A DNA stretch of 64,000 nt, taken from NCBI RefSeq assembly GCF_001865575.2, contig NZ_CP017562.2, positions 682,001 to 746,000 of the forward strand. The letters are read 5' to 3'. Below the pieces are notes generated by a model. That model searched no databases. It had not been told where the DNA came from and saw only the letters and a program-made list of their open reading frames with translations. This document shows, in pieces, positions 43,224 to 48,250 of this stretch. Source of the stretch: Paraburkholderia sprentiae WSM5005 (GTDB lineage Bacteria; Pseudomonadota; Gammaproteobacteria; Burkholderiales; Burkholderiaceae). The position numbers were made by a program, and so were the translations under genes. How positions within the stretch are numbered: the stretch's first letter is position 1; each line of letters begins with the position of its first letter.

Positions 43224-43832
43224 TCAAACATTGGCACCCCCCGGATGGTTAGCACAAAGCTTTCGTACAGCCGCCGCTCGTGCGTCGTGTGTTGACGCTT
43301 CGCTCTTTAGCAACATCGAACGACACACAGGCTCATAACGCCCCCAGGCATCGGGAAATAACTCACGCACAGCGTCAATCTCTTTTTCCGAAATACCAAA
43401 GGGTAATTCGCCAGGTGTTTCGAAATAGTACCGACCGCACAAATGGAGTGCCCTGGTAAACTGCGTCCGCTGGAACTCATCTAGCGGACGCAGCCATTGC
43501 ACTACCGTGCAGACACTACGCCACTCCGATCTCACCATTCCTCCCCACAATTGCCGTCGCAACCACGGCATCCTGCCCGCTTTCGCGCGACCGGTTAGCG
43601 CGGCTTCGTTTAGGTCAAGTGCGCGCCATTCACCGAAAATTGAAAGAATATTGCCCATCGTCTCGGGGAATATCTCGATCCAGAAGATGCGCTCCAGTGT
43701 TGCATCGTCATAACCCGACTCGGCGCAACTGCGCGCGACGAATGGTATCTCCCAACGCGTCTCGGTATCGAGAAACAGGTCACTCATTGCCGCCCAAACT
43801 GGTCGGCGACGTGCAAGATTTTCGGGGGTCAC
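43224..43832 (-). CDS. Candidate immunity protein (DUF7079-like)
   Basis: This protein is ~202 residues if the GTG at 43832 is the start (VTPENLARRRPVWAAMSDLFLDTE); a TTG at 43877 is less likely. The sequence has the RRPVWxAMSDLFLDTE and SGYDDATLERIFWIEIFP pattern of the DUF7079 family, which appears beside secreted toxins. No membrane helix is seen. It ends the five-gene minus-strand cluster, 72 bases after the glycine-rich gene, and is a candidate immunity protein to it. That is inference from position; a pore toxin would more often have a membrane immunity protein. Confidence 0.55.
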   Translation of the reverse strand: MTPENLARRRPVWAAMSDLFLDTETRWEIPFVARSCAESGYDDATLERIFWIEIFPETMGNILSIFGEWRALDLNEAALTGRAKAGRMPWLRRQLWGGMVRSEWRSVCTVVQWLRPLDEFQRTQFTRALHLCGRYYFETPGELPFGISEKEIDAVRELFPDAWGRYEPVCRSMLLKSEASTHDARAAAVRKLCANHPGGANV

Positions 43833-43904
43833 GATACGACACTCTGGCAAAATTTGACAATAAAGATTGGCTCGCAATGGTCTATTGCAAGCCGGCTATG
43901 AGAT

Positions 43905-44705
43905 TTAATTGGCAATAATGCTCTTAAAGCTGGTTAGGGCCGAATCATACCAGTCCTGTATGTGCTCGCCGACCTGACCGCCCATAGCCGCGCCGATAGA
44001 CACCGTGGCTGCTGCGCATACCGGCTCTGCGGGGCCACACAAGAACGAAACCGCACCACCAGCAATAGCGCCACCAATGAAACCTGCGGCAATGATATCG
44101 CCTTGTTTTGCCGCCTCCCTAATTTTATCTTTTGCATTAATAATTGCGCCAACTGCATAGATGGCAACTACGATTATGGCCGTAACGCCAAGACCTTTTT
44201 GTATTTTTGTTCCTTTGGTGACTTTTACGTTATCGCGACCAGCCGAAAGAATTGTTTCGAAATAAACCGTAGCTCGCTGATCGGCATTTAGAAACTTAAA
44301 GTCAACGCGATATTTCGCGTTTGCGTATTTATTAAGGTAATATTCAAACCCCCTTGATTTCATCTTTATAGCTTCCGCTCCCGCGATGCCAATGGCCGAT
44401 GTATATTTACGATATTCAACGAATAATTGGTCTCGAACTTGGCTGCAATATTCAGCTGCCTCCTTTACGGACAAGTTTCCGTTTTCAACAGCCTGCCTAA
44501 CCGAAGTGGAAATTCGCTTGATATGTGCCTTGTATTGCTGCCTTACAAATTCATCGGTAATAATGCCATGAGATACAAATAGCGCAGCCGCCTCAAAGGC
44601 ATCTAATTGCGCTTTGAGAAAGTCCACACCTATTTCATGACTTTGCCTGGTTCGGAATTGCCCATCGACTACGACGCTTTTTTTATCTCCTTGAATTTCT
44701 GACAT
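43905..44705 (-). CDS. Candidate T6SS effector with glycine-rich hydrophobic C-terminus
   Basis: This 266-residue protein starts at ATG 44705, two bases after the previous PAAR stop. Residues 1-155 are helical and charged with no named domain. Residues ~172-190 form a hydrophobic helix (VTAIIVVAIYAVGAII), and ~205-250 a Gly/Ala-rich stretch (IAAGFIGGAIAGGAVSFLCG, SIGAAMGGQVG) that looks like a glycine-zipper membrane segment. Such C-termini occur in membrane-permeabilising toxins. The gene is AT-rich relative to flanks, a sign of recent acquisition. A role as PAAR-loaded effector is inferred from coupling with two PAAR genes; no enzymatic motif is seen. Confidence 0.6.
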   Translation of the reverse strand: MSEIQGDKKSVVVDGQFRTRQSHEIGVDFLKAQLDAFEAAALFVSHGIITDEFVRQQYKAHIKRISTSVRQAVENGNLSVKEAAEYCSQVRDQLFVEYRKYTSAIGIAGAEAIKMKSRGFEYYLNKYANAKYRVDFKFLNADQRATVYFETILSAGRDNVKVTKGTKIQKGLGVTAIIVVAIYAVGAIINAKDKIREAAKQGDIIAAGFIGGAIAGGAVSFLCGPAEPVCAAATVSIGAAMGGQVGEHIQDWYDSALTSFKSIIAN

Positions 44706-44707
44706 AT

Positions 44708-45322
44708 TTACCCCGCAATTGATGCAAGAATTGATTCGGTTACTGAGCCGGAAGCCTCCGCGCTATCGTCTAATACCACCTCTACGCGTGCGCATGGGCT
44801 ACCATTGTTGGCGCGCTCGAATCGCACCGTGTTGCTTGCGTTGAACGTTCCGTACTCTTTGGAGCCGTCCGCGAAGTGCGCGACACAGCGCATACCTTCG
44901 CAGTTTCCCTGCTCTCTTAGGGCGAAGCTGATCCAATGATTAACAAACGGCGCTAACGTGGCATGCTTGCTAGTTGTCCGCTTGTCATCCCGATCATGGA
45001 TGATCCACCTACGGCCGTATATCGCGATGATCCGGGGAGGGTCGGCACACTTGCATAGAACGATATCCCCGCCCACGGCTTGACGTCGCCCGCCGTTCAC
45101 GCGATCAATCAGGCGATGCCCATCGCCCAGGCCCGAACCGTATGTAATCAGCCCCGTGCTATCGCACTTGGCGCAATACGCGGTGTCTCCAATGAAGGCT
45201 AGGCGGCGGCGCTTGCCATCCTCGCCCATGATCGTGCCGCACTGCTTGTCGGAAAAAACACGGCTTCCTTTGCCGCTTGTCAGTGGATCGTCTTCGACCG
45301 CTGCATAATAAGTTTCAGTCAT
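44708..45322 (-). CDS. PAAR domain protein with conserved C-terminal extension (second copy)
   Basis: This 204-residue protein starts at ATG 45322, two bases after the first PAAR stop. Residues 1-~105 are a PAAR spike: repeated short beta turns with Cys pairs (CAKCDSTGLITYGSG, CKCADPPRIIAIYG) that bind Zn at the tip. A linker leads to an extension from ~130 (HWISFALREQGN, GMRCVAHFADGSKEYGTFN) ending SVTESILASIAG. The same extension is in the other PAAR protein here. PAAR proteins cap the VgrG spike of the T6SS; the extension probably holds the cargo. No VgrG is in the window. Confidence 0.85.
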   Translation of the reverse strand: MTETYYAAVEDDPLTSGKGSRVFSDKQCGTIMGEDGKRRRLAFIGDTAYCAKCDSTGLITYGSGLGDGHRLIDRVNGGRRQAVGGDIVLCKCADPPRIIAIYGRRWIIHDRDDKRTTSKHATLAPFVNHWISFALREQGNCEGMRCVAHFADGSKEYGTFNASNTVRFERANNGSPCARVEVVLDDSAEASGSVTESILASIAG

Positions 45323-45324
45323 GC

Positions 45325-45906
45325 TTACCCTGCGATCGCTGAGAGTAGGGATTCGGTTACTGAGCCTGATCCGTTCGCGTTGTCGCCTGGTAATATCTCA
45401 AGGCGCGAACATGCACTGTCATTGTCAAAGCGCTCGAAGCGCACTGTATTATCTGCACTGAACGTGCCGTATACTTCTGAATCGTCATTGAAGTGCGCAA
45501 CGCAGCGCAGACCCGCGCAATTTCCGCGCTCCCGTAGCGCAAAGGAAATCCAGTGACTGGCAACATCGTTCGTGCGTGCGGTGTTCGCCGTATCACTCGC
45601 CCTCGTACTGTCCGAGCCGGTGTTGAGATGAATGAACATTCCTGCATCTGCACCCGCGATTACCCGGTTCTTTCCGCAAGGACATAGCACGTTGTCACCG
45701 TGTACAACGGCATTCCTGTTATTTTCTGACACGCCGTCACCGGTGCCGATGATCTTGAACACGCCCTTGCAGTTGCCACACGTCGCTTCCTCACCATGCA
45801 AGGCAATATGTTTTCCGCCATCAAACATCGTGGACGAAAGCGCGATAACGAATCCTCTGGTGGTTGTCGGGTCGCCATGTCGAACCAGTGCAAGCCTCAT
45901 AGTCAT
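45325..45906 (-). CDS. PAAR domain protein with conserved C-terminal extension (first copy)
   Basis: This 193-residue protein starts at ATG 45906; ATG 45900 is a better-spaced alternative from its RBS. Residues 1-~95 are PAAR-type (GDPTTTRGFV, ATCGNCKGVFKIIGTG, VLCPCGKNRVIAG), with Cys pairs for Zn. The extension (HWISFALRERGN, GLRCVAHFNDDSEVYGTFS, SVTESLLSAIAG) is clearly paralogous to the second copy. It would sit at the tip of a T6SS spike. It lies 27 bases after the first gene of the cluster. Confidence 0.85.
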   Translation of the reverse strand: MTMRLALVRHGDPTTTRGFVIALSSTMFDGGKHIALHGEEATCGNCKGVFKIIGTGDGVSENNRNAVVHGDNVLCPCGKNRVIAGADAGMFIHLNTGSDSTRASDTANTARTNDVASHWISFALRERGNCAGLRCVAHFNDDSEVYGTFSADNTVRFERFDNDSACSRLEILPGDNANGSGSVTESLLSAIAG

Positions 45907-45933
45907 TTTCCCTGTTGAAAGTTTCTGGATTAA

Positions 45934-46602
45934 TCAAAAATCGACAAAGTGCCAGTCACCCGATTCTGGGTCATAGATTGCGCACTGGTCCATAGAGGAC
46001 TTGCCAAGTTCTTCCGCCGCAATGGTCGGCGGCATCCTGGCTATTGCCTCTTCAGCTGCATCGTGAATCTGCGCAGTTGACCAGCCATCCATTGCTTCGA
46101 GCGTTTCGGCGAAGTTTGACAAGCCTGCTTTCGCGAAGATGTCTTCAATTCGGTCGACGACGCGCCCGGTAAACCGGATGGAAAAGTGGTCCCATTGGTC
46201 ACGCGAAATCTCAAACGAGTCACCGGTGTAGACCATGATGGGCTGCGCGTGCTTGCCGACGACAATCCGGCCGCGATCCGCAGCGAAAGCGTAGTTAACC
46301 GATACGTTCAGGCTTCCGTTCTGCTCAAGAAAATGACGCGTATCGACGCACCTGAAATCAATCGGCCAGAAGTGATCTTCGTCATCGTGCAGGTCCATTG
46401 AACCCAAGATCGCATCGAGCGGACTCAGATAGGTACAGATCATGCGCCGGTGGTCTGCGCGGTGGCAAAGCATCTGCATGTCACCGCAGTAGTGACTGCC
46501 GGGCGAGACGGATGGAGCATCAAGTGGCTTGTTCACCATCGCATACAGGCGAAGCGAAGAATGTAACTGGTAGGGACAGGCTTCATGTGTATCGGCAGAC
46601 AA
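45934..46602 (-). CDS. Hypothetical protein at head of PAAR cluster
   Basis: This 222-residue protein has a start at TTG 46602, eight bases after AAGGAG. No known domain is recognised and no signal peptide or membrane helix is seen. The centre is beta-rich with aromatic residues (HFWPIDFRC, QWDHFSIRFTG); the C-terminal third is helical and ends SGDWHFVDF. First-position genes of PAAR-effector clusters are often chaperones or adaptors (DUF2169 or DUF4123), but no resemblance to those is seen. Its role is unknown; co-transcription with the PAAR genes is inferred from spacing. Confidence 0.6.
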   Translation of the reverse strand: MSADTHEACPYQLHSSLRLYAMVNKPLDAPSVSPGSHYCGDMQMLCHRADHRRMICTYLSPLDAILGSMDLHDDEDHFWPIDFRCVDTRHFLEQNGSLNVSVNYAFAADRGRIVVGKHAQPIMVYTGDSFEISRDQWDHFSIRFTGRVVDRIEDIFAKAGLSNFAETLEAMDGWSTAQIHDAAEEAIARMPPTIAAEELGKSSMDQCAIYDPESGDWHFVDF

Positions 46603-46882
46603 ACGGACATCTCCTTGAAGTCAGGACGCGTCGGCAAAAGGAACCTAACGCCCTCCGGTCAATGCCGGACTGCGTAATCCCTTTTCCTGAATCAGTTCGC
46701 AAAACCGATAACTGACCATTTAAATTCGAGCCGGTCAACGAAATTAAATCGAGATAACCTAGAATTAACAATCATTAACAGATAGATGCACGATGCAATC
46801 GATTCACGATGCATGGTTCTCCATCGACGTCCATCAAAAAAAGGCGGCATTGAGCCGCCTTCTCCTAAGTGATCGGCGCCAG
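46603..46882. other. Intergenic region upstream of the PAAR cluster
   Basis: About 280 bases, AT-rich in the middle (46710-46790), likely contain the promoter of the PAAR cluster on the minus strand. The terminator of the gene on the right lies in its right end (46836-46861). No other structure was recognised. Confidence 0.45.
46836..46861 (-). terminator. Intrinsic terminator of gene at 46883-47284
   Basis: A7 (46836-46842) precedes AAGGCGGC (46841-46848), a five-base loop and GCCGCCTT (46854-46861) on the plus strand. Read on the minus strand this is a GC stem followed by a U-run, 22 bases after the stop of the gene on the right. Confidence 0.82.
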
Positions 46883-47284
46883 TTAGTGCTTTGTCCACGA
46901 AGCGTCCATAGCCGCCAGTTTCCCGTTCGCGCCGTGCGCAGCGTCAGCGAGAATCGCTGCCGCGTCCCCCGGTGTCAGTTGGCGGTTAGGAAGCCCCTTG
47001 GCGTCGAGCGCAAGCACCGTGAACAGTTCCTGATCGCAGCGGTTGGTCGAGTGATAGTTCTCGCCGATCTGGATCATCAGTTCCAGCAGGTTGCGGTGTT
47101 CGTGTCTTTCCTCGACAGTCACAGCAGGACTCCTGAATATCGAGGTCGCCAGTGTAATCAGATGTCGGAGTTGCTGCCCCTGCCGGTCGCAAAGATGGAA
47201 GGCGGCCAGCGCGAGCTGTTCATACCGGAGAGCGTCTACAGGGGGGCGGGATGGAGATTGCTGCTTTCTGGTGGGTTTGGTCAT
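46883..47284 (-). CDS. Hypothetical phage-type protein
   Basis: This 133-residue protein starts at ATG 47284 (MTKPTRKQQSPSRPP). A basic Pro-rich start leads to a helical body (LALAAFHLCDRQGQQLRHLITLA) and an acidic end. No family is recognised with confidence. It is followed by a strong terminator and overlapped upstream by an Ash-like leader frame, an arrangement typical of small phage and satellite genes. Function unknown. Confidence 0.6.
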   Translation of the reverse strand: MTKPTRKQQSPSRPPVDALRYEQLALAAFHLCDRQGQQLRHLITLATSIFRSPAVTVEERHEHRNLLELMIQIGENYHSTNRCDQELFTVLALDAKGLPNRQLTPGDAAAILADAAHGANGKLAAMDASWTKH

Positions 47285-47552
47285 GCGCGGTCCCGGTTAT
47301 CGTGAAGGATCGCCCGGACACATAGGGAGCTGGTGAGCGGGCACAGTGACAGGGTTGGCAGACCGGACTTGAAGACCAACGACCGGCAGGCGCGAGCGCC
47401 TCCCTGCCAAGGCCCGCCCATAGAAAACAGACGTGCAGAGGCAGAGGCATCGCCTGCGGGGCAGGCGTGCCGGTCTTCAAATTTTTCAGGCTGCCAAGCC
47501 CGATCCGTCGCTGTTTCAACGGCATTCCGATTATAAACAGATGCCGGACCAT
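47220..47552 (-). CDS. Possible Ash-like leader reading frame
   Basis: A 110-residue frame (LGSLKNLKTGTPAPQAMPLP, FTITGTAHDQTHQKAAISIPP) overlaps the start of the phage-type gene at 47284 in another frame. Its Cys-, Ser- and Pro-rich, low-complexity composition and its end overlapping the next gene's start recall the Ash-family leader frames found upstream of genes in P4-like satellites. A second open frame overlaps it, so its reality is not certain. It is included as a low-confidence call. Confidence 0.3.
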   Translation of the reverse strand: MVRHLFIIGMPLKQRRIGLGSLKNLKTGTPAPQAMPLPLHVCFLWAGLGREALAPAGRWSSSPVCQPCHCARSPAPYVSGRSFTITGTAHDQTHQKAAISIPPPCRRSPV

Positions 47553-47722
47553 TGACGATTATTGGGATTGTGCGCTGTCGCGAAGGTTGACGGGACTTTC
47601 GCCGTGCCCGTATGACCTTCAATGCCGTTCACGGCGTTTGCGTTGCCTTCGATGTGAATCACGGTGCGGGCCGCGAGCATTGCGACCACGAGAACGAGCA
47701 GGATCAGTGCAAAGCGTCGCAT
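47531..47722 (-). CDS. Small membrane or secreted protein
   Basis: This 63-residue protein starts at ATG 47722 with GGGAGAA upstream. It begins with a single hydrophobic helix (FALILLVLVVAMLAARTVI), after which the sequence is polar. It could be a signal anchor. No family is recognised. It belongs to the phage-remnant-like stretch 46.9-48.1 kb. Small proteins of this type sometimes act in lysis or defence, but nothing shows this here. Confidence 0.5.
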   Translation of the reverse strand: MRRFALILLVLVVAMLAARTVIHIEGNANAVNGIEGHTGTAKVPSTFATAHNPNNRQWSGICL

Positions 47723-48250
47723 GATGGGGTTCTCCCGCGCTACAGGTAGACCTCTACCGCGCTGCGGGCAGGATCAACTGTATTCACGCATGACCAGCAG
47801 CCCGTCGCTGCCACGGCCAGGGCCGTGAACGACCCGGAACTACCAAGTCCGCCCCGACCGCCTGCTCAACGACCAGAGCCATCACGGAAGGGCGTCGCCC
47901 CGTACGGACCAGGCGCCGCACATACCGCCAATGCCGAGCATGGATTTCCCGCCCGAGGTGTAGTTCGCCACCGTCGTGCTGACAACCGGCGGGGAACCCT
48001 ATCCGCATAGCAAGGTGCAAAGAAAAAAGCCTCGAACGCGGGGAGCGATCGAGGCTGCTGAAGGACAGGCTCAATGCCTGTCTGGCAAGGTCGATCGGAC
48101 CCGTGATCGACCACTGCCAATATAGCGAGTTATCCGCCGAATAATTGTGAACAAATGTCGCGTCGTATTGGCCAGTGAATGCGCCAATTAATCGGAATTG
48201 CGGCGCCGTAATGGCGCGCAGTGTGGCCCACGATTGAGTGGGCCGCCGAC
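47723..48250. other. Phage-remnant-like region without intact gene
   Basis: This ~530-base stretch has overlapping short frames on the minus strand. One near 47790-47830 reads like the lipobox end of a small lipoprotein (FTALAVAATGC, then VNTVDPARSAVEVYL before a stop), but it has no start codon. A terminator lies at 48028-48056. I call no gene here. The stretch is probably decayed phage DNA. Confidence 0.4.
48028..48056 (-). terminator. Candidate intrinsic terminator
   Basis: AGCCTCGA (48028-48035) and TCGAGGCT (48049-48056) form a stem with a 13-base loop, preceded by A6 on the plus strand. On the minus strand it gives a U-run after the stem. It may end transcription from the ParB-like gene or a lost gene. 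Confidence 0.6.

What the first reader, a model, noticed from the sequence alone, without database searches (positions are those of the whole stretch)
43224..46602. Candidate undescribed T6SS PAAR-effector-immunity cassette
Five minus-strand genes are tightly spaced, with gaps of 27, 2, 2 and 72 bases. They are an unknown protein, two paralogous PAAR proteins, a glycine-rich membrane-active candidate and a DUF7079-like candidate immunity gene. The region is partly AT-rich and has no VgrG. Two PAAR tips for one effector is an unusual arrangement.
Basis: partly seen in the sequence, partly recalled or inferred. Interest (0 to 1): 0.8.

Follow-up and report, generated by a model that had tools for sequence, protein, structure and literature searches.

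The report
Orphan T6SS tip and toxin cassette
A soil bacterium carries a five-gene weapon cassette in which two different spear tips share the same kind of adaptor tail beside one probable membrane toxin, and its relatives suggest that tips, tails, toxins and protective proteins are traded as separate parts.

Summary
The five genes exist as described: UP222, PAARa, PAARb, a 266-aa protein (TOX) and a DUF7079 gene, with gaps of 27, 2, 2 and 72 bases. It is most likely an orphan type VI secretion (T6SS) tip/cargo cassette; the genome has 4 TssC and 9 VgrG matches elsewhere. Relatives add three things. (1) The PAARs' ~79-aa tail (CTD) tracks TOX, not the tip: PAARa and PAARb tips are not closest kin (p-AU 2e-6) yet carry 65% identical tails, while PAARa-like tips elsewhere carry transthyretin-like tails beside peptidase genes. 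(2) All 28 TOX loci examined have, downstream, a small two-TM gene (14), DUF7079 (13) or both (1). The window's TOX lies inside the two-TM clade yet has only DUF7079: an apparent immunity exchange. (3) UP222 belongs to an unnamed family found near PAAR or VgrG in 30 of 38 loci, with different cargoes; its confident model has no significant PDB or viral match. Best reading: UP222 helps load the tip, either PAAR presents TOX through its tail, TOX attacks membranes, DUF7079 probably protects. Toxicity, docking and immunity are inferred. The exact five-gene order was not seen elsewhere; one relative has the same gene kinds in another order.

The parts
45934..46602 (-). UP222: 222-aa candidate T6SS tip chaperone/adaptor of an unnamed family (TTG start)
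   Evidence: No Pfam/NCBIfam family over cut-off. Family has a PAAR or VgrG match on the same strand within 3 kb in 30 of 38 loci. AF2 model pLDDT 88.4, pTM 0.84. No PDB or viral fold match at E<=0.001.
45325..45906 (-). PAARa: PAAR tip plus C-terminal CTD (CTD at about 45328-45564)
   Evidence: PF05488 39.5 bits. Tip half in a clade with L039_3, L079_a, L080_a, L039_1 (100/98).
44708..45322 (-). PAARb: divergent PAAR tip plus C-terminal CTD (CTD at about 44711-44947)
   Evidence: PF05488 13.1 bits, under cut-off. Tip half groups with L048 (99/93); as closest kin of PAARa rejected (p-AU 2e-6). CTD 65% identical to that of PAARa, tips 33%.
43905..44705 (-). TOX: 266-aa candidate membrane-active cargo effector
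   Evidence: Relatives in 20 of 249 family genomes at E<=0.01, own genome and weak hits included. Two hydrophobic segments, conserved GxxxG, two invariant Cys. AF2 model poor, pLDDT 57.5.
43224..43832 (-). DUF7079 protein, candidate immunity (GTG start at 43832)
   Evidence: PF23296 69.6 bits. 10 of 15 DUF7079 matches in 150 family genomes lie beside a TOX ORF.
46733..48006 (-). Leader block holding orf133 (46886-47284), with copies elsewhere in the genome, two of three in front of T6SS-type genes
   Evidence: 87% identical copy at C2:666383-667649 directly 5' of a vgrG; partial 82% and short 75% matches.

Best explanation
An orphan T6SS tip/cargo cassette. UP222 helps load or assemble the tip. 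PAARa and PAARb are alternative tips that cap VgrG spikes made elsewhere in the genome. Each tip carries the same kind of C-terminal adaptor domain (CTD), which recruits the separate cargo TOX, probably through TOX's N-terminal G-x-[FY]-x-[TV]-x(3)-H region. After injection, TOX's hydrophobic, glycine-rich C-terminal half inserts into the target's inner membrane and permeabilises or depolarises it. DUF7079, with no hydrophobic segment, protects the producer and its kin. Shown here by sequence: the genes, their homology, the modular tip/CTD/cargo association, the two downstream gene types, and UP222's association with tip genes. Inferred: secretion, docking, membrane damage, immunity, chaperone role.
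For: CTD-bearing gene upstream of TOX in 19 of 28 loci. A CTD profile matched 14 of 249 genomes; of its 20 matches 19 lie in TOX regions (one of them beside the TOX remnant of L057) and the other is a 29-position remnant. Tip and CTD histories disagree: PAARa and PAARb tips as closest kin rejected, p-AU 2e-6; their CTDs as closest kin not rejected, p 0.47. Double dissociation: L215 and L087 have unrelated heads (18%) but 58% identical CTDs and 58% identical lysozyme-family cargoes; L215 and L073 have 58% identical heads but different CTD types and cargoes. A two-TM or DUF7079 gene downstream of TOX in 28 of 28. UP family near PAAR/VgrG in 30 of 38, with TOX, M35 peptidase or lysozyme cargo nearby. 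Genome has 4 TssC, 9 VgrG and 8 PAAR matches. All 14 aligned TOXs with an upstream CTD gene have the N-terminal motif; the five aligned and one further TOX of tip-less loci (L051, L052, L054-L056, L233) lack it but keep DUF7079.
Against: No experiment. The TOX model is poor, so the membrane mechanism rests on hydropathy, GxxxG and the two-TM partners. The CTD has no credible PDB match, and its likeness to TTR is not shown (hhalign probability 5.5%). PAARa-type and PAARb-type tips, though not closest kin, fall on one side of a supported split (97/95). DUF7079 in window and L073 is 77% identical while their TOXs are 52%, and L073 also has the two-TM gene, so DUF7079 here may be a hitch-hiking or orphan immunity. 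A terminator-like hairpin separates it from TOX. Eight of 38 UP loci have no tip gene within 3 kb. UP222 is missing near most TOX: it lies upstream in the window and L053 and as a remnant in L057. L070 has the motif but no CTD gene was found upstream. The loci are related, not independent.
Confidence: 0.66

Rival explanations
1. Same cassette, but DUF7079 is not the cognate immunity. It is an archived or orphan immunity gene kept downstream, and the true partner, a two-TM protein, has been lost, so TOX may be decaying or neutralised otherwise.
For: Closest TOX relatives L038 and L039 have the two-TM gene and L073 has both; the window lies in that clade (99/98). The window's TOX has the longest end branch of that clade (0.8). 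DUF7079 is far more conserved than TOX between window and L073 (77% against 52%). No two-TM relative found in the genome, though that search had no positive control.
Against: DUF7079 without the two-TM gene accompanies TOX in 13 of 28 loci, overlapping it by 4 bases in three and by 16 in two, so it seems to suffice elsewhere. TOX is an intact ORF with the family's invariant residues.
Confidence: 0.25
2. The two PAARs are not alternative tips. They are leftovers of cassette shuffling, and only one, probably PAARa, is a working tip; PAARb or its CTD is a passenger.
For: PAARb falls below the PAAR cut-off. The L039 PAARb relative has an in-frame stop. Several related loci are broken or lie by transposase genes.
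Against: Both are intact here with 2-base gaps, and both CTDs stay close to the CTDs of L039 (51-61% and 48-58%, pairs compared there). Two PAARs with like tails also occur in L079 with another tail type.
Confidence: 0.3
3. UP222 is an immunity or effector protein rather than a loading factor.
For: Small gene next to effectors; one weak Imm8 hit (E 0.019) in 1 of 24 members.
Against: It lies 5' of PAAR or next to VgrG, with unrelated cargoes nearby.
Confidence: 0.15
4. TOX carries an as yet unrecognised enzymatic activity and the hydrophobic part only carries it across the membrane, as the glycine zipper of Tde1 does.
For: GxxxG segments permeabilise and translocate in Tde1 (PMC10240207, passages). 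TOX residues 163-257 match an internal part of a phage 'endolysin' profile (E 3e-5).
Against: The glycine-rich part is C-terminal with little after it; the N-terminal half has no family match over cut-off. Small two-TM partners in relatives suggest a membrane target.
Confidence: 0.2

Closest known systems
VgrG C-terminal TTR domains in cargo delivery (EAEC VgrG1/Tle1; predicted for P. aeruginosa VgrG2b and VgrG2a; PMC7376260, passages)
   Same: A small C-terminal domain on a spike part linked to one cargo. In relatives (A4: L079-L088, L104, L105, L107) the PAAR tail matches VgrG2b 6h56 (E 4.6e-10) and 6sjl (E 6e-6).
   Different: The domain is on PAAR or another head, not on VgrG; the window's CTD has no detectable homology to TTR.
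DUF2169 and PRK06147 tip chaperones (Tvp; PMC13373197, passages); DUF4123 and DUF1795 adaptors (recalled)
   Same: UP222's gene position near PAAR or VgrG.
   Different: No Pfam match to such families in 24 members at E<=1; no PDB fold match at E<=0.001.
T6SS orphan islands (PMC13098142, passages)
   Same: Tip genes with effector and immunity away from the main cluster; one relative on conjugative plasmid pOLGA2.
   Different: No vgrG in the cassette; two tips with a shared tail type; undescribed cargo.
Tde1 glycine-zipper effector (PMC10240207, passages) and pore-forming Tke5 (PMC12909789, search listing)
   Same: GxxxG or hydrophobic segments, probable inner-membrane target.
   Different: No Ntox15 or other known toxin domain matched.
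Tde5 with Tdi5a and Tdi5b, dual immunity (PMC13392607, abstract and outline)
   Same: Two unlike candidate immunity genes beside one toxin, as in L073.
   Different: Here the two types mostly replace each other across the family; immunity untested.

Membership tests
PAAR tip protein (PF05488) | Match to the PAAR profile over its gathering score (PAARa) | tested here: met
   39.5 bits against 27
PAAR tip protein (PF05488) | Same, for PAARb | tested here: not met
   13.1 bits against 27; divergent PAAR kin by tree and phrog_5348
TTR-domain adaptor | Homology of the window CTD to TTR domains | tested here: inconclusive
   hhalign probability 5.5%; no credible PDB hit
Known T6SS adaptors (DUF4123, DUF2169, DUF1795) | Profile match of UP222 | tested here: not met
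   0 of 24 members at E<=1
Known T6SS adaptors (DUF4123, DUF2169, DUF1795) | Shared fold in solved structures | tested here: inconclusive
   No PDB match at E<=0.001; no positive control run, AlphaFold DB not on hand
DUF7079 (PF23296) | Profile match over cut-off | tested here: met
   69.6 bits against 27
T6SS effector | T6SS-dependent secretion and toxicity | not testable with these tools
   Needs bench work
T6SS effector-immunity pair | Conserved neighbourhood of effector and candidate immunity gene | tested here: met
   28 of 28 TOX loci have a two-TM or DUF7079 gene downstream; 10 of 15 DUF7079 matches beside TOX
T6SS effector-immunity pair | Neutralisation by the partner | not testable with these tools
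   Needs bench work
Tde1/Ntox15 effectors | Ntox15 domain | tested here: not met
   No such match at E<=0.1 in 19 TOX members

The most novel reading that the evidence does not exclude
The cassette exposes a plug-in logic of T6SS loading in Burkholderiaceae. A cargo-specific tail (CTD or TTR) is fused to interchangeable tip heads, including a head with no Pfam family, so one toxin can ride on several spikes. A dedicated chaperone family with a possibly new fold (UP222) serves these tips whatever their cargo. Meanwhile one toxin family switches between two unrelated immunity proteins, with an intermediate (L073) carrying both.
Probability: 0.42. Interest if true: 0.75.

Novelty: new variant of a known kind. 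Interest (0 to 1): 0.58.

Why it matters
How a T6SS decides which cargo rides on which spike is an open question. Here tip heads and cargo-linked tails appear to recombine independently, and two tips with one tail type sit beside one cargo, so 'which part chooses the spike and which part chooses the cargo' becomes directly testable with two gene removals. UP222 is a candidate new loading-factor family that no curated family scanned here covers, and the TOX family offers a natural series for studying how a toxin changes its immunity protein.

Tried and rejected
TOX structure: AF2 model at pLDDT 57.5, too poor for a fold search. Profile search of TOX in the PDB: nothing credible. UP222 profile in the PDB: hits almost all to designed Kelch-type repeats through its short C-terminal YDPE..W motif, rejected as a motif coincidence. 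UP222 as a DUF932 or Imm8 protein: sub-threshold hits only. UP222 and TOX beyond the family: 1 of 321 class genomes each, the window's own, with only some first-look candidates scored. Plasmids gave TOX in three records, one of them Eleftheria, and UP222 in none. Phages gave neither UP222 nor the TOX C-terminal part, the only part searched. CTD as TTR: not shown. Concerted evolution of the two window CTDs: suggested by identities (65% within the locus, 56% and 58% to the matching L039 copies), but the CTD tree neither shows nor rejects a clade. In L053 the pattern is reversed: tips 43%, tails 34% identical. Spurious short hits ignored: DUF7079 on the opposite strand in L038, and ParBc2 on the L039 TOX.
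Full report
What is there. The window is G000:C2:682001-746000 of a 7.84-Mb genome in five contigs. The genus is probably Paraburkholderia, because the same-genus contig G075:C106 has the length and match position of a P. kururiensis contig. The five minus-strand genes are real, at the stated coordinates and gaps. PAARa and DUF7079 pass Pfam; PAARb and the other two do not. The genome has four TssC matches, nine VgrG matches and eight PAAR matches, PAARa among them, so tips from this cassette have spikes to cap. None of the nine VgrG matches is inside the window.

TOX and its partners. TOX relatives were found in 20 of 249 family genomes at E<=0.01, own genome and weak partial hits included, and in three plasmid records. 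A TOX profile matched only the window's own genome among 321 class genomes. I examined 28 loci: the window, 20 regions, four new ones and three plasmid records. They are related, and four are near-identical Trinickia copies. On the TOX strand and downstream, each has either a relative of small proteins with two hydrophobic segments (14), a DUF7079 gene (13) or both (1: L073, Burkholderia sp. H160). The reference set for that count included proteins of these loci. In the reverse test, 10 of 15 DUF7079 matches in 150 family genomes lie beside a TOX ORF and five do not. In the TOX tree (26 rows) the window sits with L038, L039 and L073 (99/98), inside a clade of 15 whose other members have the two-TM gene. 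L073's DUF7079 is 77% identical to the window's, while the TOXs are 52% identical; third codon positions differ at 0.24 and 0.64. So DUF7079 and TOX have had different histories here, and L073 looks like an intermediate in an exchange of immunity genes. The direction is inferred.

The adaptor tail. The two PAARs are 33% identical in the tip half and 65% in the last 79 residues. In trees, PAARa's tip groups with L039_3, L079_a, L080_a and L039_1 (100/98), PAARb's with L048 (99/93); the two as closest kin are rejected (p-AU 2e-6), though both clades lie on one side of a supported split (97/95). Their tails are not rejected as closest kin (p 0.47) but not shown to be. L079_a and L080_a carry a different tail whose profile matches the VgrG2b chain 6h56 (E 4.6e-10) and 6sjl (E 6e-6), TTR regions by the literature. 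PAARa-like tips with that tail precede Aspzincin_M35 peptidase genes in L081 and L085; M35-like toxins beside PAAR genes are known (PMC8651086, passages). The window-type tail matched 14 of 249 genomes; 19 of 20 matches are in TOX regions. The cleanest case is outside the window. In the window's own genome, L215 has a head with no Pfam family, a TTR tail and a phage-lysozyme gene. L073 has the same head (58%) with the window-type tail and TOX. L087 has an unrelated PAAR head (18%) but the same tail (58%) and a like lysozyme (58%). The tail follows the cargo; the head does not. Against a simple TTR story, the window-type tail shows no significant similarity to TTR. L053 does not fit the 'like tails in one locus' pattern (tips 43%, tails 34%).

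How TOX may dock and act. All 14 aligned TOX proteins with an upstream CTD gene have an N-terminal motif G-x-[FY]-x-[TV]-x(3)-H (D for G in L050); the five aligned TOXs of tip-less loci and that of L233 lack it. L070 has it without a CTD gene found upstream. I infer that this is the docking region. The C-terminal half has hydrophobic segments, a GxxxG motif and two invariant cysteines. Residues 163-257 match an internal part of a phage profile labelled endolysin (E 3e-5), which may be a match of hydrophobic composition. Glycine zippers permeabilise membranes in Tde1 (PMC10240207, passages). I infer inner-membrane damage; the structure model was too poor to help.

UP222. A profile of UP222 matched 30 of 249 family genomes and none of 320 other class genomes. 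I fetched 40 regions; 38 had a UP ORF, and 30 of those had a PAAR or VgrG match on the same strand within 3 kb, some of them partial VgrGs. From the window genome's density of such genes I would expect about one in a hundred by chance (my estimate, not a run). Cargo genes nearby differ: TOX, M35 peptidase, phage lysozyme. That fits a tip-loading role, not immunity to one toxin. The AF2 model is confident (pLDDT 88.4, pTM 0.84). Foldseek gave no PDB match at E<=0.001 (best 0.028) and no viral one (best 0.0089). No adaptor family matched in 24 members. I ran no positive control with a known adaptor, and cellular predicted structures were not searchable.

Cassette mobility. A 1.27-kb leader upstream of UP222 has an 87% identical copy directly 5' of a vgrG about 60 kb away, an 82% partial copy with no PAAR or VgrG found within 1.5 kb, and a short 75% match 5' of the L215 cassette. 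One relative sits on a conjugative plasmid beside IS21 genes; others are broken. Orphan islands of this sort are known (PMC13098142, passages).

Literature. DUF7079 is in no paper of the held library. My searches on PAAR with TTR, tandem PAAR, redundant PAAR, glycine-zipper and membrane effectors, and orphan immunity listed nothing that I recognised as this cassette, judged from titles and abstract starts only, in lists cut to the best rows. Known parallels: TTR in cargo delivery (PMC7376260), alternative VgrG-PAAR assemblies in one T6SS (PMC4924876), DUF2169 tip chaperones (PMC13373197), toxins beside PAAR genes (PMC8651086), dual immunity (PMC13392607). The first four I saw as passages, the last as abstract and outline.

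Verdict. A real, probably functional T6SS tip/cargo cassette of a known kind, with an undescribed cargo family, a candidate new loading factor and an unusually clear modular separation of tip, tail, cargo and immunity. No function has been tested.

Noticed in passing
window 46733-48006; G000:C2:666383-667649 (L064, L213): A 1.27-kb leader with orf133 is duplicated at 87% identity directly 5' of a vgrG island about 60 kb upstream; further partial matches at C2:486484 and C2:1102283.
   Followed up: partly
L215:1677-2800 (G000:C2, near 1102283): A 174-aa protein with a head of no Pfam family and a TTR tail, followed by a phage-lysozyme gene; the same head carries the window-type tail before TOX in L073.
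   Followed up: yes
L039:9685-11450: Three CTD-bearing PAAR-type ORFs in a row before TOX in a Caballeronia; the PAARb relative has an in-frame stop.
   Followed up: partly
L057:9366-9995 (also L166): A UP222-like start fused to a TOX end, apparently by an internal deletion, with a gene nearby that looks to me like a transposase (by eye).
   Followed up: no
G000:C2:1645189-1645464 (L230): A second, orphan DUF7079 gene in the same genome with no TOX beside it.
   Followed up: partly
L231:4980-5549 (plasmid pOLGA2): PAAR-TOX pair on a conjugative plasmid with TOX in two ORF pieces next to IS21 genes.
   Followed up: partly
window 43893-43869: Terminator-like 10-pair hairpin between TOX and DUF7079; may uncouple their transcription, but within chance expectation.
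   Followed up: no
L040:10177-10842, L041:7705-8373: A ~221-aa protein downstream of TOX and its two-TM partner in Trinickia; the L041 copy scores very weakly with the UP222 profile (17 bits).
   Followed up: no
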